Of a DNA stretch of 64,000 nucleotides, positions 9,275-54,079 are shown in pieces. Source of the stretch: Chromobacterium sphagni (GTDB taxonomy: Bacteria > Pseudomonadota > Gammaproteobacteria > Burkholderiales > Chromobacteriaceae). The notes below the pieces were generated by a model. The model was given only the letters and a program-made list of their open reading frames with translations. It was not told where the DNA came from and did no database searches. Every line of letters begins with the position of its first letter. Positions within the stretch are counted from its first letter, which is position 1. The stretch lies in the NCBI RefSeq assembly GCF_001855555.1, contig NZ_MKCT01000001.1:1178001-1242000 (forward strand), given 5' to 3'. The translations under genes and the position numbers were made by a program.

Positions 9275-9278
9275 CACC

Positions 9279-12115: not shown

Positions 12116-12116
12116 G

Positions 12117-13202: not shown

Positions 13203-13213
13203 GGATCGCGACG

Positions 13214-14575
13214 ATGGATTACGCCAATCGACAAGTGATGGTGGTGGGGCTGGGAGGCTCGGGGCTTGCCGCCGCGCGCTACCTGGCCGCCCACGGCGCG
13301 CGCGTCGGCGTGGCCGATGCCAATCCGTCCGACGAGCGGCTGGCCGAACTGGAACGCCTGCTGCCGGGCACGGCGGTGAAGCGCGGCGAGTTCACCGCCG
13401 ACACCTTCGCCGGCATCGACTTGCTGGTGGTCAGCCCCGGCGTGCCGCTGGCCAATCCGGCCATCGCCGCCTACCGCCGCGCCGGCGGTGAGGTGGTGGG
13501 CGACATCGAGATCCTGGCGCGCGCGATCCGCGGCGACGGCAGCAAGGTGATCGCCATTTCCGGCTCCAACGGCAAAAGCACCGTCACCAGCCTGGTGGGC
13601 CACCTGTGCGAGGCAGCCGGCCTGGATGCCATCGTCGCCGGCAATATCGGCCTGGCGGTGCTGGAGGCGCAGCTGGCGCGGGAACAGAGCGGCAAGCGTC
13701 CGGACGTATGGGTGCTGGAGCTGTCCAGCTTCCAGTTGGAGTCCACCTTCAGCTTGCAGGCGGACGCCGCCACCGTGCTGAATATTTCCGAGGACCATCT
13801 CGACCGCTACGCCGACCTGCTGGATTACGCCCACGCCAAAACCGCCGTGTTCAACGGCCAGGGCGTGCAGGTGCTGAACCGCGACGACGCGCTGGTGCGG
13901 GCGATGGTGCGCCCCGGGCATCAGGTGAAGTGGTTCTCGCTGAATGGTGCGGCCGACTACGCGCTGGCGCGCAACGGCGGCTACCACTTGAGCGTGGCCG
14001 GCGAGAAGGTGTTCGACTGCGCCGACATGCCGCTGCAGGGCCTGCACAACGCCGCCAACGCGCTGGCCGCGCTGGCCTTGTGCCAGGGCATAGGCCTGGC
14101 GCTGCCGGCCCTGCTGGAGGGACTGAAAAGCTTTCGTGGCCTGGCGCACCGGGTGGAGCTGGTAGACGAATTCGACGGCGTTGCGTTTATCGATGATTCC
14201 AAGGGAACCAATGTGGGCGCCACCGAGGCGGCGCTCAACGGCATGATCCGCCAGGTGGTGTTGATCGCCGGCGGCGACGGCAAGGGCCAGGACTTCGCGC
14301 CGCTCAAGCCGGCCTGCCAGCGCATCGCGCGCGCGGTGGTGCTGATCGGCCGCGACGCGCAGCGGATCGAGTCGGCGCTGGCCGGCTGCGGCCTGCCGCT
14401 GGAGCGCTACGCCACGCTGGAAGAGGCGACGCGGCGCGCGGCGGCGCTGGCGCATCCGGGCGATGTGGTGCTGCTGTCGCCCGCCTGCGCCAGCCTGGAC
14501 ATGTTCCGCAATTACGCCCATCGCGCCGAGGTGTTCATCGCCACGGTGGCGGAGTTGAAGGCGGCGCGGCGATGA
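13214..14575 (+). CDS. murD: UDP-MurNAc-L-alanine:D-glutamate ligase MurD
   Basis: Adds D-Glu to UDP-MurNAc-L-Ala. The 453 residues include an N-terminal Rossmann-type fold ([17 protein letters not shown]), the ATP loop [13 protein letters not shown] near residues 115-127, and [10 protein letters not shown] in the centre. GAGGATCGCGACG supplies the ribosome binding site, 11 nt after the mraY stop. The order of murD after mraY and before ftsW is that of the canonical dcw cluster. Confidence 0.97.
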
Positions 14576-15729
14576 ACCGCAACCCGGCGCGCCATTATGT
14601 GGCGATCACTCCGCTGGACGAGGCGCTGGCCTGGGCGCTGGCCTTGCTGCTGTCGATCAGCCTGGTGATGGTGTATTCGGCTTCCATCGCTTACGCCGAG
14701 GCTGACGCGGCGACGCAGAACCGCTACTTCTACCTGATCCGCCACGTGGTGTTCATGGTGATCGGACTGGCGGCGGCATACGCGGCCTTCCAGATTCCCA
14801 CCGGCTTCTGGCAGAAGTATTCCGGGAAGATTTTCCTGATCGGGCTGGTGATGCTGGTGCTGGTGCTGATTCCCGGCATCGGCAAGGTGGTCAACGGTTC
14901 GCGGCGCTGGATCAATCTGCTGGTGCTCAATCTGCAGCCGTCGGAGGTGATGAAGTTCGCCACCGTGCTGTACGCGGCGGACTACACGGTGCGCAAGAGC
15001 CACCTGTTGCACAGCATCAAGGAAGGCTTCCTGCCGATGTTCGCGGCGATGGTGGTGGTGGCCTTTCTGCTGCTGCGCGAGCCGGACTTCGGCGCGCTGA
15101 TGGTGGTGATGAGCATCGCGATGGGCCTGCTGTTCCTCGGCGGCATCAATATGCGCATCTTTTCGGGACTCGCGGCGATGGCGGTGGTGGCGATCGTGTT
15201 GCTGATCGTTTCCTCGCCGTACCGTCTGAAGCGGGTGCTGGGTTTCATGGACCCGTGGGACGACCCGTACGGCAAGGGTTATCAGCTGAGTCACTCTCTG
15301 ATCGCCATCGGTCGTGGAGAATGGTTTGGCGTGGGGCTGGGCGGCAGCATCGAGAAATTGTTCTACCTGCCGGAGGCGCACACCGACTTCATCATGGCGG
15401 TGATCGCCGAGGAATTCGGCTTCGCCGGCATCTGCGTGGTGATCGGCCTGTACGCCTGGATCGTCCGCCGCGCCTTCCACATCGGCGTGGAGTCGAAAAA
15501 GCTGGAGCGCTACTACCAGGCGCTGGTGGCGCAGGGCATAGGCATCTGGCTGGGCATCCAGGTGTTCTTCAACATCGGCGTCAACATGGGCCTGTTGCCC
15601 ACCAAGGGCCTGACGCTGCCGCTGATGTCGTTTGGCGGCTCGGCGATGCTGATGAATCTGATAGCCGTGGCGGTGCTGCTGCGGGTGGATTATGAAAACC
15701 GCCGCATCATGCGCGGCTACAAGGTTTGA
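14572..15729 (+). CDS. ftsW: Peptidoglycan glycosyltransferase FtsW
   Basis: SEDS-family polymerase that makes septal glycan strands from lipid II together with FtsI. The 385-residue protein is almost wholly hydrophobic with about ten membrane helices and the SEDS signatures [18 protein letters not shown] and a terminal-region [22 protein letters not shown] overlaps the murD stop. A central Asp in EPDFG corresponds to a conserved SEDS position. Confidence 0.97.
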
Positions 15730-34550: not shown

Positions 34551-34632
34551 CGCGGATGCCGGCGCGCCGCCGACCGGCTAACATGGCGGGATGGCGCGCG
34601 ACCGCGTTGCCGTTTCCCTGCTGGAGAGTCCC

Positions 34633-34983
34633 ATGCTGCCTGCCAAAATGGTTACCACCACTTTCGATCTGCCCGGCTACCGGGTGACGGCCAATCTGGG
34701 GGTGGTGCGCGGCATCACCGTGCGCTCGCGCTCGATTGTCGGCAATTTCTTTGGCGGCCTGCAGTCGCTGTTCGGCGGCAACATCACCATCTATACCAGC
34801 CTGTGCGAGCAGGCCCGCTCGGAAACCTATGCGCTGATGTGCGAGCACGCGGCGGCGCTGGGCGCCAACGCGGTGATCGGCATGCGCTACGACGCCACCG
34901 ACGTGATGGCGGGCTTGACCGAGGTGCTGTGCTACGGCACCGCGGTGCGGGTGGAGCCGCTGGACGCGGCTCGCCAGCTCTAG
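34633..34983 (+). CDS. UPF0145 / YbjQ-family protein
   Basis: A 116-residue protein of the YbjQ family, predicted to form pentamers of unknown function. Family features are [31 protein letters not shown] (about residues 21-51), the helix [27 protein letters not shown] and the C-terminal YGTAVRV strand. Start ATG 34633 has GGAGAG upstream. Its stop overlaps the stop of the convergent GNAT gene. Confidence 0.85.
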
Positions 34984-35909
34984 CCCGGAGCGGCCGTGGT
35001 CTGCAGTTCCAGTTGGTGCAGCCGCTCGGCCTGGGCGTCGCAAAACCGGATGGCGTCGCCGCGCTGGCCGCGCAGGAACAGCAGCAGCCAGCCGTCGCCG
35101 GCGTCCGGCAGCAGGCCGCCGAAGCCGAAGCCGGCCTGCCGCAGCGCGGGCAGCAGCGCCAGCGCGTCGGCGCTCAGCGCCAGCTTCAGGTAGAGCAGCT
35201 GGCCGGCGGGCAGGGTGGCGATCTCCGCCAGCCGTGCCGCGGTCGGCTGGTGGACCGTGATCTCCAGCCGCTGGCCGTGGCGGGCCAGACTCAAGCCGGG
35301 CAATCTGGCCGACGGAGCGACGGCGGCGCGCTGTCCGAAGGCCTGCTGCAGCGGCCGCAGCCATTCGCGCCATTCGGCGGGCCAGGCCAGGTCAGGCAGG
35401 GGGCGCGGCTGCAGCGGCAGGCAGCCCAGCACGATGCTTTCCGGTTCCGGCTTGCCGAACGGCGAGTCGACGTAGTCCAGCATCAGCGCGCTGGTGTGGA
35501 AGCCCAGCGTTTGCGCCACGTACTGGCTCTGCGGATGCGAGCATACCTGTTTGATGGTCAGCAGCGCGACGCCCTGCACCGCCGCGGCCGCGCGCAGATG
35601 GCGTCCCAGCAGACTGGCCACGCCCTGGCCGCGCGCGTCCGGGTGCACCACGTTCAACGCCAGTTCGGCCTGCCCCGGCCGCGCCGGGTCTTGCCACAGC
35701 GTGGCATGGCCCACCAGCCGGCCATCCAGCAGCGCCACCGCCGAGCGCCATTGCCCGCTGGCGTTGCGTTGCTGGATCTGGCTGGGCAGATAGACGTCGG
35801 GATAGACGTAGTGGTCGCCGTAGACGGCGCGGAACAGCGCGCTGACCGCGGCGGCGTCTTCGGCCTGGTAGTCGCGCGCCCAGGCGGAGGCGGGGTGGCG
35901 GGCGCTCAT
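34980..35909 (-). CDS. GNAT-family N-acyltransferase, last gene of the lux-like operon
   Basis: The first 150 of 309 residues form a GNAT fold: [19 protein letters not shown], then [24 protein letters not shown] (residues about 82-105), whose RGQGVAS loop is the acetyl-CoA pyrophosphate-binding motif A. The second half (about 160-309) is a less conserved beta-rich region that I cannot assign. The start overlaps the stop of the upstream PaaK-like gene (ATGA), which places it firmly in the same operon and suggests that it acylates the pathway's intermediate or product. Confidence 0.8.
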
Positions 35910-37168
35910 GGCTGCGCCTCCTCAGGCTGGTAGTCGCGCCGGTCCACCACCCGCATCAGCTTGCCGGAGCGCGGATGGGTATGCATCTGCTCCGGACTGG
36001 TCTGCGATACCTCCAGTTGCAATTGTCCGGCGGCGCACAGCGCCGCGATGGCGTGCTGGGCGGCCAAGACGTCCTGGCGCAGCGCGGCGCAGTCCAGTTG
36101 CCGGCGGCTGGCCAGCAGCAGGCCGAGGCAATCCATGCCTTGCCGCCGTTCGATCACCAGCTGCCAGGCCAATAGCTCGGCGTGTCTTTCCAGCAGCGGC
36201 GCTAGCTGCTGCGGGAACAGCGACAGGGTGCCGACGCGGATGCGGTGGCCGTTGCCGGCGCGGCCCTGCAGCGCGAACTTGCGCCCAGGGCCGGGTGGCT
36301 CGCGCCAGCAGGCCAGGTCGCCGGTGGGGTAGCGGATCACCGGCATTAGCCGGCGCTGCAGATTGGTCAGCACCAGCAAGCCGCTGCGGCCGGTTTCTTC
36401 AATCGTCTCGCCGCTGGCCTCGTCTATGATTTCCACCAGGCTGTCGCCGTCGAACACCCGGTGCTCGCCGTGGCGGCAGCCGGGATCGGCGTAACCTATC
36501 AGGCCGGCGTCGACGCTGGCGCAGCCTACCGAGGCGATGCGCGCCTGCGGGAAAGCCTGCTTCAACAGCGCGATCTGCTCGCCGAACAGGCTCTCGCCAC
36601 CGTAAAGCACGGTGTCCACCTCGTCCAGCGTTGTGTTCTTGCCGGTCAGGTGGTGGGCGAAGCGCAGCAGCTGCGCCGGCACGCCGGCCAGCGCGTTGAT
36701 CCGGTGCTGGGCGATGGCGTCTGCCAGCGCCGCGTCGTCGACATTGCAGGTGAACGGAAACTCCACCACCGGCAGCGGCGCGTGCGACAGCGCGCCGTGG
36801 ATGAACAGCAGGCTGGTGTAGAGGTCGCCGGCGAAGAACAGATTGGCGACGCGGTCGCCGGCCTTCAGCTGGCGGGCGATGCCGCGGCCGAAGGCCTGGA
36901 CGAAGGCCTGCCATTCGGCGCGGCTGAACACCGACAGCTTGCCCTCGCTGGTGGAGCCGCCGGTCTTGAACACGTGGCCGTCCTGCAGCGGCGCGCTCAG
37001 CACCGGCCAGCTGCGCAGTGTTTGCGAGCCGCGCCAGTAGTCGGCAGGGTCCGCCAGCGGCAGGTCGGACAATGTCCAGCCCTGGTCGGGCAGCGAGCGG
37101 TACAGCTCGCGGTAGAACGGCGAATGATGCAGGGCGTGGTCGACTAATTGTTTTAGTTTGGAATTCAT
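35906..37168 (-). CDS. PaaK-like adenylate-forming enzyme
   Basis: The 420-residue protein resembles phenylacetate-CoA ligase (PaaK): N-terminal HHSPFYRELYRSLP, the P-loop-like VFKTGGSTSEGKLSVFSRAEW near residues 65-85, the central TVLYGGESLFGEQ near 187-199, LLVLTNLQRRLMPVIRYPTGDLACW near 266-290 (the RY.TGD motif binding AMP ribose), and a C-terminal domain ending HPRSGKLMRVVDRRDY. Such enzymes activate a carboxylic acid with ATP and usually pass it to CoA. It starts 45 nt downstream of the LuxC fusion and overlaps the GNAT gene. Confidence 0.83.
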   Translation of the reverse strand: MNSKLKQLVDHALHHSPFYRELYRSLPDQGWTLSDLPLADPADYWRGSQTLRSWPVLSAPLQDGHVFKTGGSTSEGKLSVFSRAEWQAFVQAFGRGIARQLKAGDRVANLFFAGDLYTSLLFIHGALSHAPLPVVEFPFTCNVDDAALADAIAQHRINALAGVPAQLLRFAHHLTGKNTTLDEVDTVLYGGESLFGEQIALLKQAFPQARIASVGCASVDAGLIGYADPGCRHGEHRVFDGDSLVEIIDEASGETIEETGRSGLLVLTNLQRRLMPVIRYPTGDLACWREPPGPGRKFALQGRAGNGHRIRVGTLSLFPQQLAPLLERHAELLAWQLVIERRQGMDCLGLLLASRRQLDCAALRQDVLAAQHAIAALCAAGQLQLEVSQTSPEQMHTHPRSGKLMRVVDRRDYQPEEAQP

Positions 37169-37213
37169 GATTGCGGCTTTGGCGCCGGCGCCGCGAGGAC
37201 GCCGGCGCGGGGG

Positions 37214-39616
37214 TTAACGGCGCAGGTCCATCACCAGCGGCGTTTTGCCGCTGTGCGGGTGGCGGCGGAATTCGGCGGCCGGGGTGGCGGTGACTTCCAG
37301 TTGCAGCAGGCCGCCGCCTATCACTTCGTTCAGCATCGGGTCCTGCAGTAATTGGGTGCGGATCCGGTTCGGATCGCCGTCGGCCAACAGATGAATGCGG
37401 TCGCAGCCGCTGTTGGCCTGGTCCACCAGCCACTGCAGCGGCAGGCCTATCTCCTGAGTCAGTTCGCCCGGGTTGACGAAGATGGTCGCCACCCGCAGCA
37501 AGGCGCCGTGGCGGCCGGTGAGCTGAAAGCGCGGCGTGGCCAGGCCGCAGGCGCAGCGGCCGGACAAGCAGCGGCCCAGGTCGCCCAGGTCGTAGCGCGC
37601 CACTTGCTGCGCTTCGCGTTCGCGCGAGGTGAACACCAGGCGGCCGATCTCGCCGGTGGCGGCAGGACGGTCGCTGTCCTGCTCCAGAACTTCCAGCCAT
37701 TGGATATCCGCCAGCAGGTGGAATTCGCTGTCGGCGCCGTGCGGGCAGCCGTGGCCGAGCGGACCGGCGTCCACCGAGCCGTAGATGGCGGAGCGGATCA
37801 GCTCCACGCCGAAGCTGCCGATGTAGGCGCGCTGGCCGTCGCTGATGTGCTCGCCGCCGAAGAACACCTTGCGCACGCCGCCGTAGCGGCGCAGCAGCTT
37901 GTGTTCGCATTCGAATAAGCGGTGCAGGGTGCCGGGCATGCCGACCAGGGTGTTGATCTTTTGTTCGACGATGAAGCGGGCGATTTCGCCGAAGTCGTCG
38001 TCGGACGGGCCGCCCATCGGGTATTGCACCGCGCCCATCTGGTCCAGGATGGTGAAGAAGCTGAGCATGCCGCCGTACAGTTTGCCGCCGTACAGCAGGT
38101 TCATCACCCGGTCTTCGGCCGGGTTGAGGCCGGCGGCGAACAGGCCGTCGGCGGCCGCGCGCATCTGGCGGCGGTAATCGCGGTAGCTGAAGCCGGCCAG
38201 CTTGGGCGCGCCGCTGCTGCCGCCGCTGCGGAAGAACAACTGGGCCTTGTCGTTGGCGCCCTGGCGCTGGAAGTCGGATTTGTCCATCACCGGCAGCGCG
38301 TCGAGGCCGGCCGGGGCCGGCGGCGGGGCGTCCAGCTGGACATGGCAGCCGGCCTGGCCGGCGTCCAGGCTCACCGATACCCGGCGCGACAGCCGTGCCA
38401 GCGCGTAGACGCCGTCGTGCGGTTCGCCGTGGTAGCCGTCGTGCATGCGGCCGGCCGGCGCGATGCGGCTGACGCCGGCCGCCAGCAGCATGCGGCTCAG
38501 CTCAGGCAGCTGCGCCGCCGGGGCGATCAGGCCGCAGCTTTGCAGATGGGTGCGCCAGGGGCGCAAGATGGCCGCCAGTTCGGCGCGCGGAGCCGGCCGC
38601 ATCTGCAGGGTGCGGAACAGCGGCGACGGCGCCAGTTCCCGGCGCGTGTTCCACGCCAGCCGCCAGCCTTCGCCCCGCAGCACTTCGCCGTCCAGCTGGG
38701 CAAAGGTCTGATCCAGCCGCTGGAAGGCCATCTGGCTGCTGATCTCGGCGGCTTCCTGGATGTCCGGCGTCAAGGCCGGCCACAATGGCGCGCGGCGGGC
38801 CAGCGCGGCGGCCATTTGCGCGGCGGCGCGGCGCAGCGTGGCCGGGTCGTCGCTGTCGACCAGCAGGCATTGCGGGCTGGAACAGGCTTGTTGGTCGTGG
38901 CGGCAGATGTCGTCGGCCAGCGCGTCGAGCTGCTGCTCGCCAGCGGCGGGGTCGAGGTAGGAGAAGCTGATGCGGTGGCCCCAGTCTATCCAGCGGCAGC
39001 CGGCCGGCAGCTGCGCGCGAATGGCGGACAGCGCGCCGTCGCCGCCCCAGGCGGACACCGCGTCGGCGTCGGCCAGCAGTCGGCCCAGCTCGCCGCTTGG
39101 CAGCGGCAGCACCGCGATGCGGGCGGCCAGCCGGCCGCTGCGGTCGTGATGCAGGAACTCCGCCAGCAGCCGCGCGCTCAGGCCTTGGTCGCTGGTGCTG
39201 GGCCGCAGCCAGTTGATATTGCCGGCCAGCAAGCTTTCGAGCACCGCCATGAAGGGCAGCAGCGGGGCGTTGGCCGGGGTGATATGCACCACCAGGCCCA
39301 GCGGCTGCCAGGCCTCGAAGCGCGGCTGGCGGTAGTCGTGCCGGCGCAGCGAGAACGGCTGTTCGCCCAGTTCGCGTTCCAGCTTGGTCTCCAACGCCTC
39401 GCGCTGGCAGAAGCCGGCGAGCGCGGCGCGGCCGGCCTCGTCCAGCAGCGGGTGCTGGCTGGCGCTGGACAGCGCGTCGGCGAAGCGCTGCGCGCAGTCC
39501 ACCACCAGGTCAGGCATCGGCGTTTGCGCCAGCGTGGCGGGCAGTTGCCGGCGCAGGTCGGGCAGCAGGACGGCGAGATCAGCGGCGGCGTGCAGGGTGC
39601 CGTGGCTCAGGTACAT
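37214..39616 (-). CDS. Fusion: LuxC-like acyl-CoA reductase + PaaK-like adenylation domain
   Basis: The 800-residue protein begins at ATG 39616, behind AAGGAGTCC, 2 nt after the LuxE-like stop. Residues 1-420 are LuxC-like: LGLVVHITPANAPLLPFMAV near 107-126, the nucleophile Cys245 in HDQQACSSPQC, and VSRIAPAGRMHDGYHGEPHDGVY near 382-404. LuxC reduces an acyl-enzyme to aldehyde with NADPH. Residues about 435-800 are a PaaK-like adenylation domain: FFRSGGSSGAPKLAGFSYRDYR near 461-482, a VFFGGEHISDG block and ARYDLGDLGRC (AMP-binding), ending HPHSGKTPLVMDLRR. The open frame extends further upstream but overlaps the LuxE gene. Normal LuxC is about 480 residues and lacks this fusion. Confidence 0.85.
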   Translation of the reverse strand: MYLSHGTLHAAADLAVLLPDLRRQLPATLAQTPMPDLVVDCAQRFADALSSASQHPLLDEAGRAALAGFCQREALETKLERELGEQPFSLRRHDYRQPRFEAWQPLGLVVHITPANAPLLPFMAVLESLLAGNINWLRPSTSDQGLSARLLAEFLHHDRSGRLAARIAVLPLPSGELGRLLADADAVSAWGGDGALSAIRAQLPAGCRWIDWGHRISFSYLDPAAGEQQLDALADDICRHDQQACSSPQCLLVDSDDPATLRRAAAQMAAALARRAPLWPALTPDIQEAAEISSQMAFQRLDQTFAQLDGEVLRGEGWRLAWNTRRELAPSPLFRTLQMRPAPRAELAAILRPWRTHLQSCGLIAPAAQLPELSRMLLAAGVSRIAPAGRMHDGYHGEPHDGVYALARLSRRVSVSLDAGQAGCHVQLDAPPPAPAGLDALPVMDKSDFQRQGANDKAQLFFRSGGSSGAPKLAGFSYRDYRRQMRAAADGLFAAGLNPAEDRVMNLLYGGKLYGGMLSFFTILDQMGAVQYPMGGPSDDDFGEIARFIVEQKINTLVGMPGTLHRLFECEHKLLRRYGGVRKVFFGGEHISDGQRAYIGSFGVELIRSAIYGSVDAGPLGHGCPHGADSEFHLLADIQWLEVLEQDSDRPAATGEIGRLVFTSREREAQQVARYDLGDLGRCLSGRCACGLATPRFQLTGRHGALLRVATIFVNPGELTQEIGLPLQWLVDQANSGCDRIHLLADGDPNRIRTQLLQDPMLNEVIGGGLLQLEVTATPAAEFRRHPHSGKTPLVMDLRR

Positions 39617-39618
39617 GT

Positions 39619-40749
39619 TCAGGACTCCTTGATCAGTTCGGAAGCGGCCATCGCGCAGCTGCGGCTCTTGCTGGTGCCGGCGCGGCCCAAGAGTTCGAAC
39701 CAGTCGGTGGCCAGGCCGCAGCCGCATTGCCCGGCCGGTTGCAGCACAGCCAGGTCGCTCATCACCATGCTGTGCGCCGGGCTGGAGGTGATGTAGGGCG
39801 ACACCAGATGCAGGAAGCCGGGTTCGCCGTAGGGCTGGCGTTCCAGGGTGGCGGTGTGGCGGATGTAGGCGCGGGCGTAGCTGGGCACATGGAAACGGTG
39901 GTTCGGGCATTCGACATAAGGCACTGGATGCTCGACCGCGCCGTAGCCGTCGCGGCAGCGCGCGTCCGGCAGGCCCAGTTGTTCGCCCAGCCGGCGGTAC
40001 AACTCCAGCTTGGGGATGGCCTGGTCGGCGTGGGTTTTCCAGCCGCCGCCGAGGAAAACCAGCGAATCCGGATGCAGCTGCAAGGACGGCAAGCCCATTT
40101 CCTGCATCCGTTCCAGCGTGAACCACAGGAAGGCCGGGAAGCCGAAGATGCGCACCGGCAGGCCTTCGGCGGCGAACTCCTGCAGCGCGCGGATGGCGCC
40201 GAAGGGATCGAACTCGTTGCCCTTGCCGTTGTGGCGCAGCGCGTAGACGGCGCGCTTGACCGGCGCGTACTTGCAGAGGAACTGGTCGGTGTAGGCGGTG
40301 CCCAGCGTGATGGCGCCGGCCGGCTCGTAGCTGAGCAGCAGGTAGTTGGCGGGCTGCTCCGGGGTGTTCCAGCCGTAGTGCTCGAAGATGCGGTCCACCA
40401 TGCGCTGGGCGGCGCCTATGCTGCGCGCGTCGTAGCGCATGCGGCTTTTCTGGCCTGTGGTGCCCGACGAGGTCAGTTCCAGCGCGTCCTCGCCGGCCTT
40501 GCTCAGCAGCAGCTTGCGCTTGAAGTAATTGGCGAAGATGGGCGGCAGCTGCGACCAGTCTGACAGGCCGGCCAGCCGCTCCGGCGTCATGCCGTTCTGT
40601 TGCCGCCAGCGGCGGTAGCCGGGGCTGTGCTCGCAGTGGTAGTCGACCAGTTCGCGCATCGCGGCGTCGAACAGGCGGTCGCATTCGGCGTCGGCGCGAT
40701 AGGGATGCTCCAGGCTGCAAAGCGCTTCGACATGGGCAAGTGTGTTCAT
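39619..40749 (-). CDS. LuxE-like acyl-protein synthetase
   Basis: The 376-residue length is that of LuxE (about 370). Features are the N-terminal VDYHCEHSPGYRRWRQQNG, an ATP-binding ELTSSGTTGQKSRMRYD near residues 91-107, NYLLLSYEPAGAITLGTAYT, a FLGGGWKTH motif near 231-239, DGYGAVEHPVPYVECPNHRFHVP and a C-terminal FELLGRAGTSKSRSC. In luminous bacteria LuxE adenylates a fatty acid, takes it on a cysteine and hands it to LuxC. Here the partner is the adjacent LuxC-PaaK fusion. GGAG precedes the start; the exporter gene ends 30 nt upstream. Confidence 0.86.
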   Translation of the reverse strand: MNTLAHVEALCSLEHPYRADAECDRLFDAAMRELVDYHCEHSPGYRRWRQQNGMTPERLAGLSDWSQLPPIFANYFKRKLLLSKAGEDALELTSSGTTGQKSRMRYDARSIGAAQRMVDRIFEHYGWNTPEQPANYLLLSYEPAGAITLGTAYTDQFLCKYAPVKRAVYALRHNGKGNEFDPFGAIRALQEFAAEGLPVRIFGFPAFLWFTLERMQEMGLPSLQLHPDSLVFLGGGWKTHADQAIPKLELYRRLGEQLGLPDARCRDGYGAVEHPVPYVECPNHRFHVPSYARAYIRHTATLERQPYGEPGFLHLVSPYITSSPAHSMVMSDLAVLQPAGQCGCGLATDWFELLGRAGTSKSRSCAMAASELIKES

Positions 40750-40779
40750 TGTGACTCCGGTGTCGATGGGAAAGAGGGA

Positions 40780-42036
40780 TCAGACGGGGCTAGGCTGCGC
40801 TTGCGGCGCGCGCAGCAGCCGCCACAGCAAAGGCGCGGCCAGCACTGCGGCCAGGCTGATGCCGGCGGCGAAGCGTTGCGGGCTGGCGCCGGCGTCCAGC
40901 CAGGCCAGCAGCGCGGCGCCGCCTCCCAGCGTCGCGGTGGACAGCATGCCCAGCATGGCGGCGACGCTGCCCTTGGCGCTGTCGCTGGCGAACAGGGTGA
41001 GCCGGTACAGCGCGGCGTTGCCCAGGCCCAGGCCGAAGGCGTAGACGGCAAGGCCGGCCACCAGCGCCGGCAGCGTCGGGTGCAGCGGAGTGAGCGCGCC
41101 GATCAGCAGCAAGCCGCAGCCCATAGGCGCCAGCGCCAGCCGCAGCACCTCGGGCAGATTCTTGCGGCCGGCCAGCCGGTTCAGCAGCAGGTTGCCGGCG
41201 ATCACGCCGCCGAATACCGGCAGCTGCCACAGGCCGTATTCCAGATTGCTGTAACCCAGCTGGCGGACCAGCAGCAGCGGCGACAGGCCTATCCAGGCGA
41301 TCAGGGGCAGCGTCAGCAGGCCCAGCGCCAGGCTGCCGCACAGCACGGTGGGATGGCGCAGCAGCGCCAGGTAATTGGCCAGCGCGGCGCGCAGCCGCAG
41401 CGGCGTCGGCGGCTGCATGCTGCCGTCGCGGCGGGGAACGCCCACCGTTTCCGGCATCAGCCGCCACAGGCCCAGCGTCACCAGCAAGGTGGCGCAGCCC
41501 AGCGCGGCGAACAGTTCCCGCCAGGACAGCGCGCCCAGCAGCAGGCTGCCCAGCAGCGGCCCGGCCAGCGGCGACAGCAGCGCGATATTGGCCAACAGCG
41601 CCATCAGCCGCACCGCGTCCTCTTCGGCGAAGGTTTCCTGCAGCGCCGGGTAGCTGACCACCACGATGAAGCCCAGGCCGATGCCCTGGGCGAAGCGCAG
41701 CAGGTTGAACCATTCGATCGCCTGCGCGCCGGAGGCGGCGAAACAGGCGGCGGCGAAGCCCACGGTGCCGGCCAGCAGCAAGGGGCGGCGGCCGAAGCGG
41801 TCGGACAGCGGGCCTATCAGCCACTGAAAGGCGACGCCGCCCAGCAGGAAGGCGTTGAAGGCGGTGGGCACGTGGCGGCTGTCGGCCCGCAGGTCCTGGG
41901 TGACGCGCAGCATGGCCGGCATCACCATGTCGCTGGCGAGGTAGGTGAGCAGCTCGAAGGCGGTGAGCAGCAGGCAGAACAGCAAAGCCTGGCGGCGCGG
42001 GATCGCTAGCAGGGGACGGAAGGTTTCGGCGGACAT
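40780..42036 (-). CDS. MdfA-like MFS multidrug/metabolite exporter
   Basis: The 418-residue product from ATG 42036 (MSAETFRPLLAIP) has twelve hydrophobic helices. Helix 1 reads LLTAFELLTYLASDMVMPAML and keeps the acidic residues equivalent to MdfA Glu26 and Asp34; motif A is QWLIGPLSDRFGRRPLLLAG (about 68-87) and LRFAQGIGLGFIVV resembles motif C/B. MdfA exports cationic and neutral lipophilic compounds by proton antiport. The upstream in-frame extension to 42126 is not MFS-like. It is the first gene of the lux-like operon, so its likely job is product export or self-protection. Confidence 0.85.
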   Translation of the reverse strand: MSAETFRPLLAIPRRQALLFCLLLTAFELLTYLASDMVMPAMLRVTQDLRADSRHVPTAFNAFLLGGVAFQWLIGPLSDRFGRRPLLLAGTVGFAAACFAASGAQAIEWFNLLRFAQGIGLGFIVVVSYPALQETFAEEDAVRLMALLANIALLSPLAGPLLGSLLLGALSWRELFAALGCATLLVTLGLWRLMPETVGVPRRDGSMQPPTPLRLRAALANYLALLRHPTVLCGSLALGLLTLPLIAWIGLSPLLLVRQLGYSNLEYGLWQLPVFGGVIAGNLLLNRLAGRKNLPEVLRLALAPMGCGLLLIGALTPLHPTLPALVAGLAVYAFGLGLGNAALYRLTLFASDSAKGSVAAMLGMLSTATLGGGAALLAWLDAGASPQRFAAGISLAAVLAAPLLWRLLRAPQAQPSPV

Positions 42037-42429
42037 GGGGAACGGCTTTCTTGCTGCAGCGGCAAATAACGACGGCTGTGGGCGGGCATGGATGGGCGTC
42101 GGCCTGGCGGCGGAGCGTCCCGTCATTCAATCGGCGCACAGGATAGGTCAATAACGCAGATGCAATGCCTGTACTTAAGTATGGTTTTCCTATGCTTGTT
42201 GCTTGATTTTTTACTTTTATGGAATATGACGTCGCTTATTTGTATTTGATTGATATCAATGTGTTCTGGCAAACCGCGCTGCGGCATGGTTGCCGACAGG
42301 AGGAGCCATCCGTTTTCGGGATTGGGGCTTGGCTGGCGCCGGACCGCGGCGCTGAAGGCGGCTGCGGCGAGGGCCATGCTCATGTTATTTTCTGTGGCGG
42401 AGGCGGTTTTCGCCGCAGAAGGACAATCC
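42037..42429. promoter_or_regulatory. Divergent control region upstream of the lux-like operon
   Basis: This 393-nt gene-free region between the exporter gene and the TPR gene is AT-rich from about 42130 to 42270, unlike the flanking GC-rich genes. It holds a perfect FNR/ANR box (42246-42259), a minus-strand -10-like CATAAA (42216-42221), a plus-strand promoter-like pair TTGATT (42203-42208) and TATGAC (42225-42230) spaced 16 nt, and the palindrome TACTTAAGTA (42172-42181). Confidence 0.55.
42246..42259. promoter_or_regulatory. Perfect FNR/ANR-type binding site
   Basis: TTGATTGATATCAA matches the FNR consensus TTGATnnnnATCAA at every position. For the minus strand its centre lies about 43 nt upstream of the start point predicted from CATAAA at 42216-42221, close to the -41.5 of FNR-activated class II promoters. 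For the plus strand it would lie just downstream of a possible promoter, a repressing position. Confidence 0.65.
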
Positions 42430-43329
42430 ATGGCGAGGGTGGTGATGAGAGGGTACGGTTTGTGGTCGGCGGCGTGGTTTGCCGCCTGGGCGAATCAGGC
42501 GGCGGCGCTGGACCTGGCTTCGATGTGGAATTTCGACCAGCCGCAGGCCAGCGAGCAGCGTTTCCGCGCCGCGCTGGCGACGGCCAGTCCGGATGAGGCG
42601 CTGATCCTGCAAACCCAGATCGCCCGCAGCCACGGCCTGCGCGGCGACTTCGCCGGCGCGCGGGCGATACTCGTTGCGATCGCGCCGCAATTGCCGCGGG
42701 CCGGCGCCGAGGCGCAGGTCCGCTACCAGCTGGAATGGGGGCGCAGCTGGATTTCGGCCACCCACCCGGCGGCCTTGCAAACCGATGCGGCCAGGGCGGA
42801 GGCGCGGCGCGCCTATCTGCGCGCTTTGGAGCTGGCGCGCGCGGCCAAGCTGGACGCGTTGGCGGTGGATGCGCTGCATATGTTGGCCTTTGTCGATGCC
42901 GAGCCGGCGGCGCAACTGCGCTGGGACCGGCAGGCGCTGGAGCTGGCACTGGCGTCCGGCCAAGCTGAGGCCAGGCAGTGGCAGGCCTCGCTGCGCAACA
43001 ATATCGGCTATGCCTTGTACCAGCAGCGCGATTACCCCGCCGCGCTGGCCGAATTCCGCCAGGCCCTGGCCCTGCGGCAGCAGGGCAAGGATGCCGCGGC
43101 CACCCGGGTGGCGTGGTGGATGGTGGCCTGGACCCTGCACGCCGGGGGCGACGACGACGAGGCGCTGGCCATCCAGTTGCGGTTGGAGCGGGAAAACGAC
43201 GCCGCCGGCGATCCCGACCCCGATGTTTTCGACGAACTGGCCAAGCTGTATCGCGCGCACGGCGATTCCAGCCGGGCGGAGTATTATGTCCGGCGGCGCC
43301 AGGAAGCCGCCGACCACGTTAACCACTGA
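42430..43329 (+). CDS. Exported tetratricopeptide-repeat protein
   Basis: From ATG 42430 (AAGGA 7 nt upstream) the protein has 299 residues. A signal peptide (VVMRGYGLWSAAWFAAWANQ, cleavage near the AAALDL site) precedes a mature part made mostly of helical pairs with TPR character: AARAEARRAYLRALELARAAKLDAL, NNIGYALYQQRDYPAALAEFRQALALR (about residues 193-219) and DVFDELAKLYRAHGDSSRAEYYVRRR. It probably scaffolds protein contacts in the periplasm. It abuts the CDP-diacylglycerol diphosphatase gene with no gap. Confidence 0.72.
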   Translation: MARVVMRGYGLWSAAWFAAWANQAAALDLASMWNFDQPQASEQRFRAALATASPDEALILQTQIARSHGLRGDFAGARAILVAIAPQLPRAGAEAQVRYQLEWGRSWISATHPAALQTDAARAEARRAYLRALELARAAKLDALAVDALHMLAFVDAEPAAQLRWDRQALELALASGQAEARQWQASLRNNIGYALYQQRDYPAALAEFRQALALRQQGKDAAATRVAWWMVAWTLHAGGDDDEALAIQLRLERENDAAGDPDPDVFDELAKLYRAHGDSSRAEYYVRRRQEAADHVNH

Positions 43330-49831: not shown

Positions 49832-51865
49832 ATGAACCCGTCCCACGATTCCCATCTCTGGCTGGAAAGCCTCGATTCCGAAGCCGCCGCCGCCTGGGTG
49901 GCGCAGCAAAACGCCCGCACCGAAAGCGTGCTGGACGCCGACCCGCGCTTTGCCGGCCTGCGCGCCGACATCCTGGCCCACCTGCGCGACACCCGGCAGA
50001 TTCCGTACTTCGCCGAGCATGCCGGCTGGCTGTACAACTTTCACCAGGACGAGGCCCATCCGCGCGGCATCTACCGCCGCAGCACGCTGGACGCCTACCG
50101 CGCCGGCAGCCAGGACTGGCAGACGGTGCTGGACATCGACGCGCTGGCCGACGTCGACGAGCGCGACTGGTATCTGGATGGCGTGTCGCACTGCACGGTG
50201 ATGCCGGAGCGGGCGCTGGTGCATCTGACCGACGGCGGCGGCGACGCCACCGTGGCGCGCGAATACGACATCGAGGCGCGGCAGTGGCTGGAGCAGGGTT
50301 TCCGCTTTCCGGAAGGCAAGAACCACATCGCCTGGCGCGATCCGGACAGCGCCTTCGTCTGCCCGGGCTGGAAGGGCGCGCCGCTGACCCGCGCCGGCTA
50401 TCCGCGCGAAGTGTGGCTGGTGACGCGCGGCGCCGACGGCCAGCACGGCTGGACCCAGCTGTTCGCCGCTCCGGAGGACGCGATGATGGTGGCGGCCTGG
50501 CGCTTCCTCGACAGCGACGGCAGCGCGCTGGACCTGATCGAGGCCTCCGACGGCTTCTACCGCAAGACCTACCATCTGCTGGACGGCGCGCTGGAAACCC
50601 ATGCCTTGCCGCTGCCGGACAAGGCGGAGATCGAGGCCTATATCGCCGGCGACTTCATCGTCAAGCTGGCAGAGGACTGGAACTGGCGCGGCGAGCGCTA
50701 TCGCAGCGGCAGCCTGCTGGCGGTGAGCCTGGCCGGCCTGCTGGGCGAGGGCCCGGCGCCGCAGCTGCTGCAGGCGCCTCAGCCGCGACTTGCGGTGGCG
50801 GCGGTGGAAACCACCCGCAGCCTGTTGCTGGTCAACCTGCTGGACAATGTCAAAAGCCGGCTGCTGGCCTTCGCCAAGCAGGACGGCGTCTGGCTGCCGC
50901 GCGCCTTGCCTGTGCCGGAGGGCGGGGTGGTCGAGTTTGCCGACCAGCCCTGGCAGAGCGACATCCTCTACTACAGCTACAGCGACTTCCTCACGCCAGG
51001 CGGCCTGTACCGGCTGGATGTCGCCTGCGGCGAGGGCGAGTGCCTGCGCCAGCAGCCGGCGGCCTTCGACCCCGCGTCCTATGTGGCCGAGCAATGGCAG
51101 GCGCGCGCGCCGGACGGCGAGATGATCCCCTACTTCGTGGTGCGCCGCCGCGACGCGGCGTTCGACGGCGGCGCGCCGACGCTGCTGTACGGCTACGGCG
51201 GCTTCGAGGTGCCGATGCTGCCGTATTACATTGAAAACTTCGGCCCGCACTGGCTGGCCAAGGGCGGCGCCTTCGTGCTGGCCTGCATCCGCGGTGGCGG
51301 CGAGTTCGGTCCGCGCTGGCACCAAGCGGCGCAGGGCGCCAAGCGCCAGGTCAGCTTCGACGATTTCCTGGCGGTGGCGCAGGACCTGATTTCCCGCAAA
51401 CTGACTTCTCCGGCCAAGCTGGGGATAGAGGGCGGCAGCAACGGCGGCCTCTTGGTGGGCGCGGCGATGGCGCAGCGACCGGAACTGTTCGGCGCGGTGG
51501 TGTGCGAGGTGCCGCTGCTGGACATGCTGCGCTACACCGAGCTGCTGGCCGGCGCCAGTTGGATAGACGAGTACGGCGATCCGGACGACGAGGCCGAGCG
51601 CGCAGCGCTGGCGGCCTATTCGCCCTACCATCACCTGCGCGCCGACGCCCGTTACCCGCTGGCGCTGTTCACCACCAGCGGCAGCGACGACCGCGTCCAT
51701 CCCGGCCACGCGCGCAAGATGGCGGCGCGGCTGTTGGAGTTGGGCCATGACGCGCTGTTCTACGAAACCAATGGCGGCGGCCATTCCGGCAACGCTGGCC
51801 AGGACGACACGGCCACCGAACTGGCACGGGTACTGGTGTACCTGTACCAGCGGCTGATGGACTGA
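49832..51865 (+). CDS. Prolyl oligopeptidase family serine peptidase (S9A)
   Basis: A 677-residue cytoplasmic-type enzyme without signal peptide: an N-terminal propeller (DSHLWLESLDSEAAAAWVAQQNARTE...) and a C-terminal hydrolase. The triad is Ser in GIEGGSNGGLLVGA (about residue 535), Asp in TTSGSDDRVHPGHARK (about 621) and His in TNGGGHSGNAG (about 653). The YGYGGFEVPMLPYY and RGGGEFGPRWHQAA segments are typical of S9A. The closest known subgroup is the prolyl oligopeptidase-like hydrolases of proteobacteria. It has its own terminator. Confidence 0.93.
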   Translation: MNPSHDSHLWLESLDSEAAAAWVAQQNARTESVLDADPRFAGLRADILAHLRDTRQIPYFAEHAGWLYNFHQDEAHPRGIYRRSTLDAYRAGSQDWQTVLDIDALADVDERDWYLDGVSHCTVMPERALVHLTDGGGDATVAREYDIEARQWLEQGFRFPEGKNHIAWRDPDSAFVCPGWKGAPLTRAGYPREVWLVTRGADGQHGWTQLFAAPEDAMMVAAWRFLDSDGSALDLIEASDGFYRKTYHLLDGALETHALPLPDKAEIEAYIAGDFIVKLAEDWNWRGERYRSGSLLAVSLAGLLGEGPAPQLLQAPQPRLAVAAVETTRSLLLVNLLDNVKSRLLAFAKQDGVWLPRALPVPEGGVVEFADQPWQSDILYYSYSDFLTPGGLYRLDVACGEGECLRQQPAAFDPASYVAEQWQARAPDGEMIPYFVVRRRDAAFDGGAPTLLYGYGGFEVPMLPYYIENFGPHWLAKGGAFVLACIRGGGEFGPRWHQAAQGAKRQVSFDDFLAVAQDLISRKLTSPAKLGIEGGSNGGLLVGAAMAQRPELFGAVVCEVPLLDMLRYTELLAGASWIDEYGDPDDEAERAALAAYSPYHHLRADARYPLALFTTSGSDDRVHPGHARKMAARLLELGHDALFYETNGGGHSGNAGQDDTATELARVLVYLYQRLMD

Positions 51866-51883: not shown

Positions 51884-51912
51884 AAAAAAAGGGCGCTTCG
51901 ACGTCCTTTTTT
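51884..51912 (+). terminator. Terminator after the S9 peptidase gene
   Basis: AAAAAAGGGCG pairs with CGTCCTTTTTT (one G-U) around a short CTTCGA-type loop, giving an A-tract/T-tract hairpin ending in TTTTTTG, about 20 nt after the stop. Confidence 0.85.
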
Positions 51913-52054
51913 GTCGTCTGCCGACCGGCGGGCGGACGGACGGACTATCGATGCGGATCGCATGGATTCGATTGCTGATTGCCCGCCGCGCGGCGTACCA
52001 TCGGGCATCGGCGGCGCGGCTCGCCGCCGGCACAAAACGATAAAGAGGAAAACC

Positions 52055-54079
52055 ATGCAAGCAAGAAAATTGCTGCCGCTGGCGCTGCTGTTGTGCCTGC
52101 AGGCGGCCTGGGCCGATGGCGGCGGGCTGGATTACGGCAGCTACGGCATAGACTTCAAAGGCATCGACCGCTCGGTGCGCATCCAGGACAACATCTCCTT
52201 GTACGCCAACGGCGCCTGGATGAAACAGACCGAGATCCCGGCCGACCGCTCGTCCACCGGCGTGGCGGAGCTGCTGTACGACCGCAATCAGCAGCGGGTG
52301 CGGGAAATCATCGAGCAGGCCGGCAACGACGGCTCCACGCCGGAGGCGCGTCAGATCGCCGATCTCTACCGCAGCTTCATGGACGAAGCCGCCATCGCCC
52401 GCGCCGGCCTGAAGCCGCTGGAGTCCAAGCTGGCCGCCATCGCCGCGTTGGCTAACCAGCAGCAGGCCATCGCCTATATGGGCAGGCTGCAGAACCAGCC
52501 CGAGGACACGCCGTTCCGCTTTTACGTGGCGCCGGACGCCAAAAACTCGTCGGTCTACCTGGCTGGCGTCAGCCAGTCCGGCCTGGCTATGGACCGCGAC
52601 TACTATCTGGGCAAGTCGGCCGATTTTGCCGCCGCGCGCAAGGCCTATCAAGGCTATTTGACCCGACTGCTGACCCTGGCCGGAGAAAAGCGCGCCGCGC
52701 GCCGCGCCGCCGCGGTGCTGGCGCTGGAAACCCGCATTGCCCGCATCCAGTGGAGCAATGTGGAAAACCGCGACATCCAGAAGACCTACCACAAGGTGCC
52801 GGTGGCTGATCTGGGCACACAGCTGCCGGGCTACGACTGGCCACGGCAACTGGCTGACGCCCAGTTGTCCGCCGCCAAGGATGTCAACCTGGACCAGGCG
52901 AGCTACCTGGCGAAGCTGCCGGCGGTGCTGCTGGCCACCCCGATAGCGGTGTTGCGCGACTATCTGACCCTGCGCACGCTGGACGCCTACGCCGGCTATC
53001 TGGACAAGTCGTGGGCCGCCGCGCGCTTCGACTTCTACGGCAAGGCGCTGGATGGCCGCAGCGTGGACAGGCCGCGCTGGAAGAAGGCGGTGACGCTGGT
53101 GGACGAGGGCATAGGCGAGGCGGTGGGCAAGCTGTACGTGGCCAAGTACTTCACGGCCGAAGCCAAGCGCCAGGCCGACGAGCTGGTGCGCAATCTGCTC
53201 AGCTCCTACGACCAGAGCATAGACAAACTGGCGTGGATGAGCCCGGAAACCAAGCAGGAGGCCCATCTGAAGCTGTCCAAGTACACGCCCAAGATAGGCT
53301 ATCCGGATAGCTGGCGCGATTATTCCAGCTTGGCGATCCGGCCGGACGACCTGGCAGGCAACGTCGCGCGCATTTCCGAGTTCAACTACCGCCGCCAGAG
53401 CCAGCATCTGGGCCAACCGGTGGACCGCAAGGAATGGGGGATGACGCCGCAGACCGTCAACGCCTACTACAACCCGTCCAACAACGAGATCGTGTTCCCG
53501 GCCGCCATCCTGCAGGCGCCGTACTTCGACCCGGCCTACGATCTGGCGGTCAACTACGGCAGCATAGGCGCCACCATAGGCCACGAGATCAGCCACGGCT
53601 TCGACGACCAGGGCCACCAATTCGACGGCGACGGCAATATGCGCAACTGGTGGACGCCGGCCGACGAGAAGCGTTTCCGGGAGGAAACCGCCCGCCTGGT
53701 GGCGCAATACAGCCGCTTCGAGCCGGTGAAGGGCCAGCACGTCAACGGCGAACTGACGCTGGGCGAGAACATCGCCGACAACGCCGGCCTGGAGGTGGCG
53801 TACAAGGCCTACCATCTGGCGCTGGGCGGCAAGGAGGCGCCGGTGATCGACGGCCTGACGGGAGATCAACGCTTCTTCATCGCCTTCGCCCAGTCATGGC
53901 GCAGCAAGGCCCGCGACGCTTCGGTGCTCAAGCAGCTGGTATCCGACCCGCACACGCCGGACCTGTGGCGGCCGATCGGCACCGTCAGCAATATGGACCC
54001 GTTCTATCAGGCTTTCGACGTCAAGCCGGGCGACAAGATGTACCTGCCCAAGGAGCAGCGCTTCCACCTGTGGTGGTAA
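52055..54079 (+). CDS. M13-family zinc endopeptidase (neprilysin/PepO type), exported
   Basis: From ATG 52055 (AAAGAGGAAAACC upstream) the product has 674 residues. A signal peptide (RKLLPLALLLCLQAAWA) is followed by the M13 N domain (YANGAWMKQTEIPADRSSTG) and catalytic domain. Zinc motif HEISH (IGHEISHGFDDQGHQFDG, about residue 510) and the third ligand in GENIADNAGLEVAYKAY (about 569) are intact. The conserved VNAYYNPSNNEIVFPAAILQAPYF precedes them. It probably degrades peptides in the periplasm or outside. Confidence 0.95.
   Translation: MQARKLLPLALLLCLQAAWADGGGLDYGSYGIDFKGIDRSVRIQDNISLYANGAWMKQTEIPADRSSTGVAELLYDRNQQRVREIIEQAGNDGSTPEARQIADLYRSFMDEAAIARAGLKPLESKLAAIAALANQQQAIAYMGRLQNQPEDTPFRFYVAPDAKNSSVYLAGVSQSGLAMDRDYYLGKSADFAAARKAYQGYLTRLLTLAGEKRAARRAAAVLALETRIARIQWSNVENRDIQKTYHKVPVADLGTQLPGYDWPRQLADAQLSAAKDVNLDQASYLAKLPAVLLATPIAVLRDYLTLRTLDAYAGYLDKSWAAARFDFYGKALDGRSVDRPRWKKAVTLVDEGIGEAVGKLYVAKYFTAEAKRQADELVRNLLSSYDQSIDKLAWMSPETKQEAHLKLSKYTPKIGYPDSWRDYSSLAIRPDDLAGNVARISEFNYRRQSQHLGQPVDRKEWGMTPQTVNAYYNPSNNEIVFPAAILQAPYFDPAYDLAVNYGSIGATIGHEISHGFDDQGHQFDGDGNMRNWWTPADEKRFREETARLVAQYSRFEPVKGQHVNGELTLGENIADNAGLEVAYKAYHLALGGKEAPVIDGLTGDQRFFIAFAQSWRSKARDASVLKQLVSDPHTPDLWRPIGTVSNMDPFYQAFDVKPGDKMYLPKEQRFHLWW

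What the first reader, a model, noticed from the sequence alone, without database searches (positions are those of the whole stretch)
34980..42036. LuxC/LuxE-like aldehyde-forming operon without luciferase
Five tightly spaced minus-strand genes encode an MdfA-like exporter, a LuxE-like acyl-protein synthetase, a LuxC-like reductase fused to a PaaK-like adenylation domain, a second PaaK-like enzyme and a GNAT acyltransferase. Two junctions are only 2 nt apart or overlap (LuxE/LuxC, PaaK/GNAT). The LuxC nucleophile (HDQQACSSP) and the ATP and AMP motifs of the other domains are intact. There is no luxA, luxB, luxD, luxG, acyl carrier protein or PKS/NRPS module. Known chemistry of LuxE-LuxC gives an aldehyde from an activated acid; adding two adenylating domains, an acyltransferase and an exporter suggests a small biosynthetic pathway for a secreted aldehyde-derived or amide metabolite. 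The product is inference.
Basis: partly seen in the sequence, partly recalled or inferred. Interest (0 to 1): 0.9.

Follow-up and report, generated by a model that had tools for sequence, protein, structure and literature searches.

The report
Leupeptin protease-inhibitor operon in Chromobacterium
These five genes are a Chromobacterium copy of the already described leupeptin operon (leupABCD plus its transporter), which very probably makes and exports a small peptide-aldehyde that blocks protein-cutting enzymes, so the finding is real but not a new kind of pathway.

Summary
In detail: five intact, tightly packed minus-strand genes at 34980-42036 encode an MdfA-like exporter, a LuxE-like synthetase, a LuxC-PaaK fusion, a second PaaK-like ligase and a GNAT acyltransferase. 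The pathway is known: they are orthologues, in the same order, of leupABCD and its adjacent transporter, the leupeptin (acetyl-Leu-Leu-argininal) operon of Klebsiella, Photorhabdus and Xenorhabdus. Decisive link: published leupA/leupB typing primers match our K. michiganensis locus exactly, inside the LuxE and LuxC-PaaK homologues, and give the published 1,235-bp product. The four biosynthetic genes stand together in the same order in 79 of 80 loci; the 80th is cut by a contig end. The LuxC cysteine is kept in 92 of 92 rows, the LuxE cysteine in 94 of 95. 15 of 19 Chromobacterium genomes carry the operon, 0 of 42 others of the family. Added here: carriage in Chromobacterium, an empty site in relatives, two chromosomal versions (one with a LuxR-type box), and a tree placing Photorhabdus/X. 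bovienii copies inside Chromobacterium. This strain's product is inferred, not measured. New member of a known kind.

The parts
34980..35909 (-). leupD orthologue: GNAT N-acyltransferase, 309 aa (inferred leucine N-acetyltransferase)
   Evidence: Pfam Acetyltransf_1 2.2e-9; 41% identical to the gene at the K. michiganensis leupD position, 46% to Photorhabdus/X. bovienii
35906..37168 (-). leupC orthologue: PaaK-like AMP-forming ligase, 420 aa
   Evidence: PaaK/DVU_1553-type NCBIfam models to 7.1e-28, all below their cut-offs; PDB PaaK1 3.3e-12; 55% identity to K. michiganensis
37214..39616 (-). leupB orthologue: LuxC-like reductase (about residues 1-415, nucleophile Cys245) fused to a PaaK-like ligase domain (about 420-800)
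   Evidence: Pfam LuxC 2.8e-134; predicted model matches 7xc6 LuxC over 1-414 and PaaK-family ligases over 420-799; Cys245 in 92 of 92 aligned rows
39619..40749 (-). leupA orthologue: LuxE-like acyl-protein synthetase, 376 aa, acyl-acceptor Cys365
   Evidence: Pfam LuxE 7.7e-25; Cys365 aligns with the C-terminal Cys of P. phosphoreum LuxE 7xc6_E and is kept in 94 of 95 rows, L053 having a gap; 69% identity to K. michiganensis LeupA
40780..42036 (-). MdfA/Bcr-type MFS exporter, the 'transporter' next to leupABCD in Klebsiella
   Evidence: NCBIfam MdfA-family NF011931 7.8e-98, below its cut-off; 52% identity to the K. michiganensis transporter; directly upstream of LuxE in 52 of 80 loci
42037..42249 (-). 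upstream intergenic region, presumed promoter (no consensus sigma-70 site and no LuxR-type box found)

Best explanation
It is the Chromobacterium leupeptin operon, transporter-leupA-leupB-leupC-leupD. Shown here: orthology, gene order, kept catalytic residues, wide co-conservation, and identity of the Klebsiella homologues with published leupA/leupB. Inferred mechanism: LeupD acetylates L-leucine from acetyl-CoA. LeupC and the PaaK-like half of LeupB each adenylate an acyl-amino acid or acyl-peptide and couple it to the next amino acid, giving acetyl-Leu-Leu-Arg without an NRPS. LeupA adenylates the C-terminal carboxylate and holds it as a thioester on Cys365. It then passes to Cys245 of the LuxC half of LeupB, where NADPH reduces it to the aldehyde. 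The MFS protein exports the product, which inhibits trypsin-like serine and papain-like cysteine proteases through its aldehyde. The order of the ligation and reduction steps, and whether the C-terminal residue is Arg, Lys or homoarginine, is not settled here.
For: PMC8283571 gives locus tags and primers for leupA-D of strain CAV1374 and an adjacent transporter. Both leup primers match L061 (K. michiganensis DSM 25444) with no mismatch at 8924 and 10158, a 1,235-bp product as published, inside the LuxE and LuxC-PaaK homologues. The published cluster span 315,353-321,183, moved by the leupB_r offset, falls at 8872-14702; the ORFs there run from 8863 (an in-frame ATG at 8872) to 14699. PMC11480411 reports that the leup operon yields leupeptin, a Lys analogue and pyrazinones in K. 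oxytoca/michiganensis, and homoarginine forms in Xenorhabdus/Photorhabdus. The window's LeupA/B/C/D match K. michiganensis at 69/53/55/41% and X. bovienii/Photorhabdus at 79/64-66/62-65/46%. In the LeupA+LeupB tree the window is bracketed by these producer groups. Catalytic residues are kept. Fold.
Against: No metabolite data for this strain. Li et al. 2020 itself was not readable here; its abstract is recalled, and its results were seen only through papers that cite it. LeupD is only 41-46% identical to the producers' copies, and the glycine of its acetyl-CoA motif (recalled; Gly96) is kept in only 39 of 84 rows, though present in the window, K. michiganensis, X. bovienii and Photorhabdus. 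The loci L061 and L004 are of the producer species, but I do not know them to be the published producer strains. 28 of 80 loci lack the adjacent exporter (26 Photorhabdus/Xenorhabdus, one MAG, one cut locus), so it is not part of the core; L004, L015 and L031 are also cut near that point.
Confidence: 0.93

Rival explanations
1. Same pathway family, but this operon's main product is a different peptide aldehyde (another C-terminal residue such as Lys or homoarginine, or other residues or acyl cap).
For: Leup operons are known to give Lys and homoarginine variants. LeupD, the supposed cap-setting enzyme, is the least conserved (41-46%).
Against: LeupA, the step that should read the C-terminal residue, is the best conserved protein (69-79% to the producer species), and the window is bracketed by producer groups in the tree.
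Confidence: 0.2
2. An unrelated LuxE/LuxC pathway: a fatty or aryl aldehyde, or a bioluminescence remnant, rather than a peptide aldehyde.
For: LuxE and LuxC are the families' names; the relation to bioluminescence LuxE/LuxC is clear but distant (7.6e-14 and 6.5e-10 to 7xc6).
Against: Both proteins score far below the NCBIfam cut-offs for bioluminescence LuxC and LuxE (53.9 against 750; 61 against 550 bits). LuxC is fused to a PaaK domain in the 91 locus rows of near full length; the 9 rows dropped for length are cut loci. That set was picked by likeness to the fusion, so it is biased towards fused forms. Klebsiella homologues are leupA and leupB.
Confidence: 0.03
3. The operon is silent or decayed in this strain.
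For: The leup operon is silent in K. oxytoca in ordinary media (PMC11480411); no consensus sigma-70 site or LuxR box upstream here.
Against: All five frames open, dN/dS 0.22-0.46 against C. subtsugae, 15 of 19 genomes of the genus carry it. Silence in a medium is not decay.
Confidence: 0.05

Closest known systems
leupABCD plus transporter, leupeptin biosynthetic gene cluster of Klebsiella michiganensis/oxytoca, Photorhabdus and Xenorhabdus (Li et al. 2020, Angew. Chem. 59:17872, not read; PMC8283571 and PMC11480411, passages read)
   Same: Same genes and order, the LuxC-PaaK fusion, catalytic cysteines kept; transporter first, as in Klebsiella.
   Different: Host is a betaproteobacterium (Chromobacterium); protein identity 41-79%; neighbouring genes differ; Photorhabdus/Xenorhabdus copies lack the adjacent exporter.
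Bioluminescence fatty acid reductase LuxC-LuxE (PDB 7xc6)
   Same: LuxE family with C-terminal acyl Cys, LuxC DQQAC nucleophile, ALDH-like fold.
   Different: No luxAB/D in the operon; LuxC carries a PaaK domain; scores far below lux equivalog cut-offs.
NRPS-made peptide aldehydes of Streptomyces (leupeptin, antipain, chymostatin) and livipeptin (tRNA-using enzyme plus C-minus NRPS; PMC10548850, passages read)
   Same: Product class: peptide aldehyde protease inhibitors.
   Different: Unrelated enzymes; here discrete ligases plus LuxE/LuxC, no NRPS.

Membership tests
leup (gammaproteobacterial leupeptin) gene cluster | Orthologues of leupA, leupB, leupC and leupD in this order | tested here: met
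   same order; K. michiganensis homologues identified as leupA/leupB by exact published primers, C and D by position and the published span.
leup (gammaproteobacterial leupeptin) gene cluster | Adjacent transporter (Klebsiella form) | tested here: met
   MFS exporter directly upstream, 52% identical to the K. michiganensis transporter.
leup (gammaproteobacterial leupeptin) gene cluster | Catalytic cysteines of LeupA and LeupB and core AMP-ligase motifs kept | tested here: met
   Cys245 in 92 of 92 rows, Cys365 in 94 of 95 (L053 gap); core positions of the G-rich, YGSVDAG/GCASVDAG, RYxxGD and SGK motifs kept in nearly all rows. Rows include the window's own locus fetched again and a few genomes fetched twice; 9 short LeupB rows and 14 short LeupD rows, all from cut loci, were dropped.
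leup (gammaproteobacterial leupeptin) gene cluster | Produces leupeptin or its analogues | not testable with these tools
   No metabolomics available.
lux bioluminescence operon | luxA/luxB luciferase genes with luxCDE | tested here: not met
   None in the operon or the five nearest flanking genes scanned; the rest of the genome was not searched for luxAB.
lux bioluminescence operon | LuxC/LuxE above NCBIfam equivalog cut-offs | tested here: not met
   53.9 against 750 bits and 61 against 550 bits.
NRPS peptide-aldehyde cluster | NRPS with terminal reductase domain | tested here: not met
   No condensation, carrier or NRPS reductase domain in the five proteins.

The most novel reading that the evidence does not exclude
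Chromobacterium is an old and diverse home of the leup operon. It holds two chromosomal versions, one under LuxR-type quorum sensing, and a lineage close to the second version gave the operon to Photorhabdus and X. bovienii, nematode- and insect-associated leupeptin makers. The window's version may make its own variant peptide aldehyde.
Probability: 0.35. Interest if true: 0.45.

Novelty: new member of a known kind. Interest (0 to 1): 0.3.

Why it matters
Leupeptin is a protease inhibitor used in laboratories everywhere (recalled), and in K. oxytoca its gene cluster correlates with respiratory isolates (PMC11480411). Finding the operon in 15 of 19 Chromobacterium genomes adds an untested layer to the chemistry of a genus known for insect-active and quorum-sensing strains, and gives a ready source of orthologues for working out how discrete ligases build a peptide aldehyde.

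Tried and rejected
A first literature query with LuxC, LuxE, PaaK, 'gene cluster' and 'biosynthesis' together found 0 papers; the name came from the genus list (Photorhabdus, Xenorhabdus, Klebsiella), which made me recall leupeptin, then from papers. Bioluminescence and NRPS readings were rejected (see membership test). A LuxR-type box upstream of the window's operon was looked for and not found; one-mismatch hits in the window are at chance level (4 found, 5.6 expected). Consensus promoter and terminator scans of the operon were uninformative (0 promoter-like sites; 5 terminator-like sites against 4.0 expected). A look for a dedicated exporter beside Photorhabdus/Xenorhabdus leup genes, at one locus of each and only ORFs of 150 aa or more, found none: the neighbours scanned were an RHS/Tc-repeat protein, a pyocin-like protein, an FAD protein, a phosphate transporter and a pirin.

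Papers linking leupeptin and Chromobacterium: 12 hold both words; by the titles and abstract starts listed none concerns a leup gene cluster. Searches (229 papers, 15 listed; 38 papers, 15 listed) showed none among those listed; one search found two papers on the leup operon, both on Klebsiella. Passages of three Chromobacterium papers (PMC12114271, PMC8062528, PMC5906607) held no mention of leupeptin or LuxE where those words were searched. All this covers only open-licence PMC text and not Li et al. 2020 itself, which may list Chromobacterium. In the structure comparison the LuxC/ALDH rows have rmsd 17-18, so they show the fold only loosely.
Full report
What is there. Five open minus-strand genes lie at 34980-42036. 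In the order of transcription they are an MdfA/Bcr-type MFS exporter (418 aa), a LuxE-family protein (376 aa), a LuxC-PaaK fusion (800 aa), a PaaK-like ligase (420 aa) and a GNAT acyltransferase (309 aa). Spacing is 30, 2, 45 and -4 nt. Family matches are; the two PaaK-like parts are just under the Pfam AMP-binding cut-off and well under the NCBIfam equivalog cut-offs, so they are relatives of PaaK, not PaaK itself. The GNAT and the next gene, a YbjQ-family gene (34591-34983, plus strand), converge with 3' ends overlapping by 4 nt.

Which genome. The window lies in a 4.74-Mb genome in 104 contigs. Genus mates G010 and G016 have leup coordinates that coincide with those of the named records of C. 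sinusclupearum (L002) and C. subtsugae PRAA4-1 (L057), so the genus is Chromobacterium. G018 is a contig of 4,751,080 bases, which I recall as the genome length of C. violaceum ATCC 12472; it carries the operon too.

What it is. One scan of genome contigs with the fusion protein found 131 relatives and kept the best 80 loci: Chromobacterium, Photorhabdus, Xenorhabdus, many Pseudomonas, Rugamonas, Parachitinimonas, one Burkholderia record, Klebsiella michiganensis and two MAGs. LuxE, LuxC-PaaK, PaaK and GNAT stand together, same order and strand, in 79 of 80; the other, L058, is cut by the contig start. The exporter is directly upstream in 52 of 80 (51 by the script's rule, plus L072 where the match abuts LuxE); of the 28 without, 26 are Photorhabdus or Xenorhabdus, one is a MAG (L031) that groups with Xenorhabdus in the tree, and one is L058. 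Because the 80 were ranked by likeness to the whole fusion, more distant or unfused forms would not show.

The name. PMC8283571 (passages read) describes leupABCD, the leupeptin genes of strain CAV1374 (called K. oxytoca there; the paper ties the genes to K. michiganensis), with an adjacent transporter, and gives typing primers leupA_f and leupB_r with a product of 1,235 bp. Both match L061 (K. michiganensis DSM 25444) without mismatch, at 8924 and 10158, which is 1,235 bp, in the LuxE and LuxC-PaaK homologues. The published span and the start of the published 9,264-bp query, shifted by the leupB_r offset, fall on the ORFs of L061 (start 8872 inside the ORF from 8863; end 14702 against 14699; flanking ORF start 6046). 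So LuxE = LeupA, LuxC-PaaK = LeupB, PaaK = LeupC, GNAT = LeupD. PMC11480411 (passages read) reports leupeptin, a lysine analogue and derived pyrazinones from the operon in K. oxytoca, and homoarginine forms from Xenorhabdus and Photorhabdus operons. Both cite Li et al. 2020, which is not held; what I know of its abstract is recalled.

How it works. Cys365 of LeupA aligns with the C-terminal cysteine of P. phosphoreum LuxE, and Cys245 of LeupB lies in DQQAC, which aligns with the same motif of LuxC. PMC12655506 (passages) calls LuxE Cys362 catalytic; I take it for the same residue, allowing for numbering. Cys245 is present in 92 of 92 rows and Cys365 in 94 of 95 (L053 has a gap; its LuxE match stops at residue 347). 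Rows include the window's own locus fetched again and a few genomes fetched twice; rows under 85% of length, all from cut loci in the case of LeupB and LeupD, were dropped. The acetyl-CoA motif of LeupD is looser: its glycine (Gly96) is kept in 39 of 84 rows, among them the window, K. michiganensis, X. bovienii and P. akhurstii. A predicted model of LeupB (mean pLDDT 76, pTM 0.70; the stretch 243-245 with the nucleophile is under 50) matches PaaK-family ligases over 420-799 (4r1m, Z 26.9, rmsd 4.2, 350 aligned) and LuxC 7xc6 over 1-414 (Z 21.1, rmsd 18, 387 aligned). The chemistry follows from these families: activation by LeupA, transfer to LeupB, NADPH reduction to an aldehyde; two ligase domains for two amide bonds; one acetyltransferase for one acetyl cap. 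That three activations, one acetylation and one reduction fit acetyl-Leu-Leu-argininal is an inference; the order of steps is not shown. I recall that in Streptomyces the acid is made first and reduced last.

Distribution and history. In the genus, 16 of 19 genomes have some match at 0.001; 12 are full length, three are cut by contig ends (G004, G009, G017), and one, G011, is a weak match over part of the LuxC half that I do not count, so 15 of 19. In the family 15 of 61 genomes match at 1e-60, all in this genus. In the window type the operon lies beside the YbjQ gene, with a CDP-diacylglycerol pyrophosphatase gene on the other side: 7 of 7 loci with YbjQ examined besides the window (where the TPR gene lies between), plus G009 and G017 next to YbjQ by coordinates. 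G007 and G002 have YbjQ next to the TPR gene with no leup genes, and G011 has YbjQ next to the pyrophosphatase, so the site exists without the operon. The TPR gene at 42250 is found in 3 of 19 genomes only.

Two versions. G001, G004, G005, G006 and G013 have no YbjQ match (G014 has neither YbjQ nor leup), and in the three of these examined none of the window's flanking genes was found nearby. Their operons carry one identical perfect box CTGTCCAATAGGGCAG upstream (about 200 bp in four, 346 bp in G004 by the same reckoning of the exporter start): 5 of 13 Chromobacterium loci examined, 5 of 90 loci in all, up to 400 bases each; the window has none. The consensus CTGNCCNNNNGGNCAG for CviR is recalled. 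It occurs at 15 places in the window's 4.74-Mb genome, against 2 for the reversed control, about 0.001 expected per 400 bases. The five are close relatives, not independent.

Tree. In a LeupA+LeupB tree of 39 chosen rows, Photorhabdus and X. bovienii group with G013 (100/100) next to the other Chromobacterium rows (93/93 for the wider group, just short of the starred level), and a Burkholderia record lies inside the window's group. Holding the eight Chromobacterium rows together is rejected (p-AU 2e-103), and also with the Burkholderia row added (p-AU 0.0004). The groups were named after the tree was seen, K. michiganensis and one MAG are long branches, and five rows have an odd letter make-up, among them L057, L003 and the G013 row. 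Gene transfer between these insect- and soil-linked bacteria is the likely reading.

Verdict. Observation right, interpretation right in kind, pathway known. A new host genus for a known operon, as far as can show.

Noticed in passing
L123, L124, L125, L133, L134 (G013, G005, G001, G006, G004), upstream of the exporter: Identical perfect LuxR/CviR-type palindrome CTGTCCAATAGGGCAG upstream of a second chromosomal version of the leup operon; absent from the window's version.
   Followed up: partly
L126 (G007), L127 (G002), L128 (G011): The leup site without the operon: YbjQ gene next to the TPR gene in two genomes, next to the CDP-diacylglycerol pyrophosphatase gene in the third.
   Followed up: yes
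L003 (record named Burkholderia multivorans WS-FJ9): Complete leup operon nested among Chromobacterium copies in the tree, 71% identical in LeupB, suggesting transfer.
   Followed up: partly
Pseudomonas loci among L035-L081: Many Pseudomonas genomes carry all five genes in the same order (mostly about 50-65% identity, GNAT 36-45%), a separate clade in the tree; their product is not known to me.
   Followed up: no
L053 (Pseudomonas iridis), LuxE gene at about 8871-9911: LuxE match stops at residue 347 and the row lacks the C-terminal Cys365, so this copy may be truncated or frameshifted.
   Followed up: no
window 49832-51865 and 51911-54079: Two adjacent plus-strand peptidase genes, a prolyl oligopeptidase (S9) and an M13 metallopeptidase, 8-12 kb from the leup operon; no link shown.
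   Followed up: no
window 42250-43329: TPR-repeat gene beside the operon, found in only 3 of 19 Chromobacterium genomes, two of which lack leup.
   Followed up: partly
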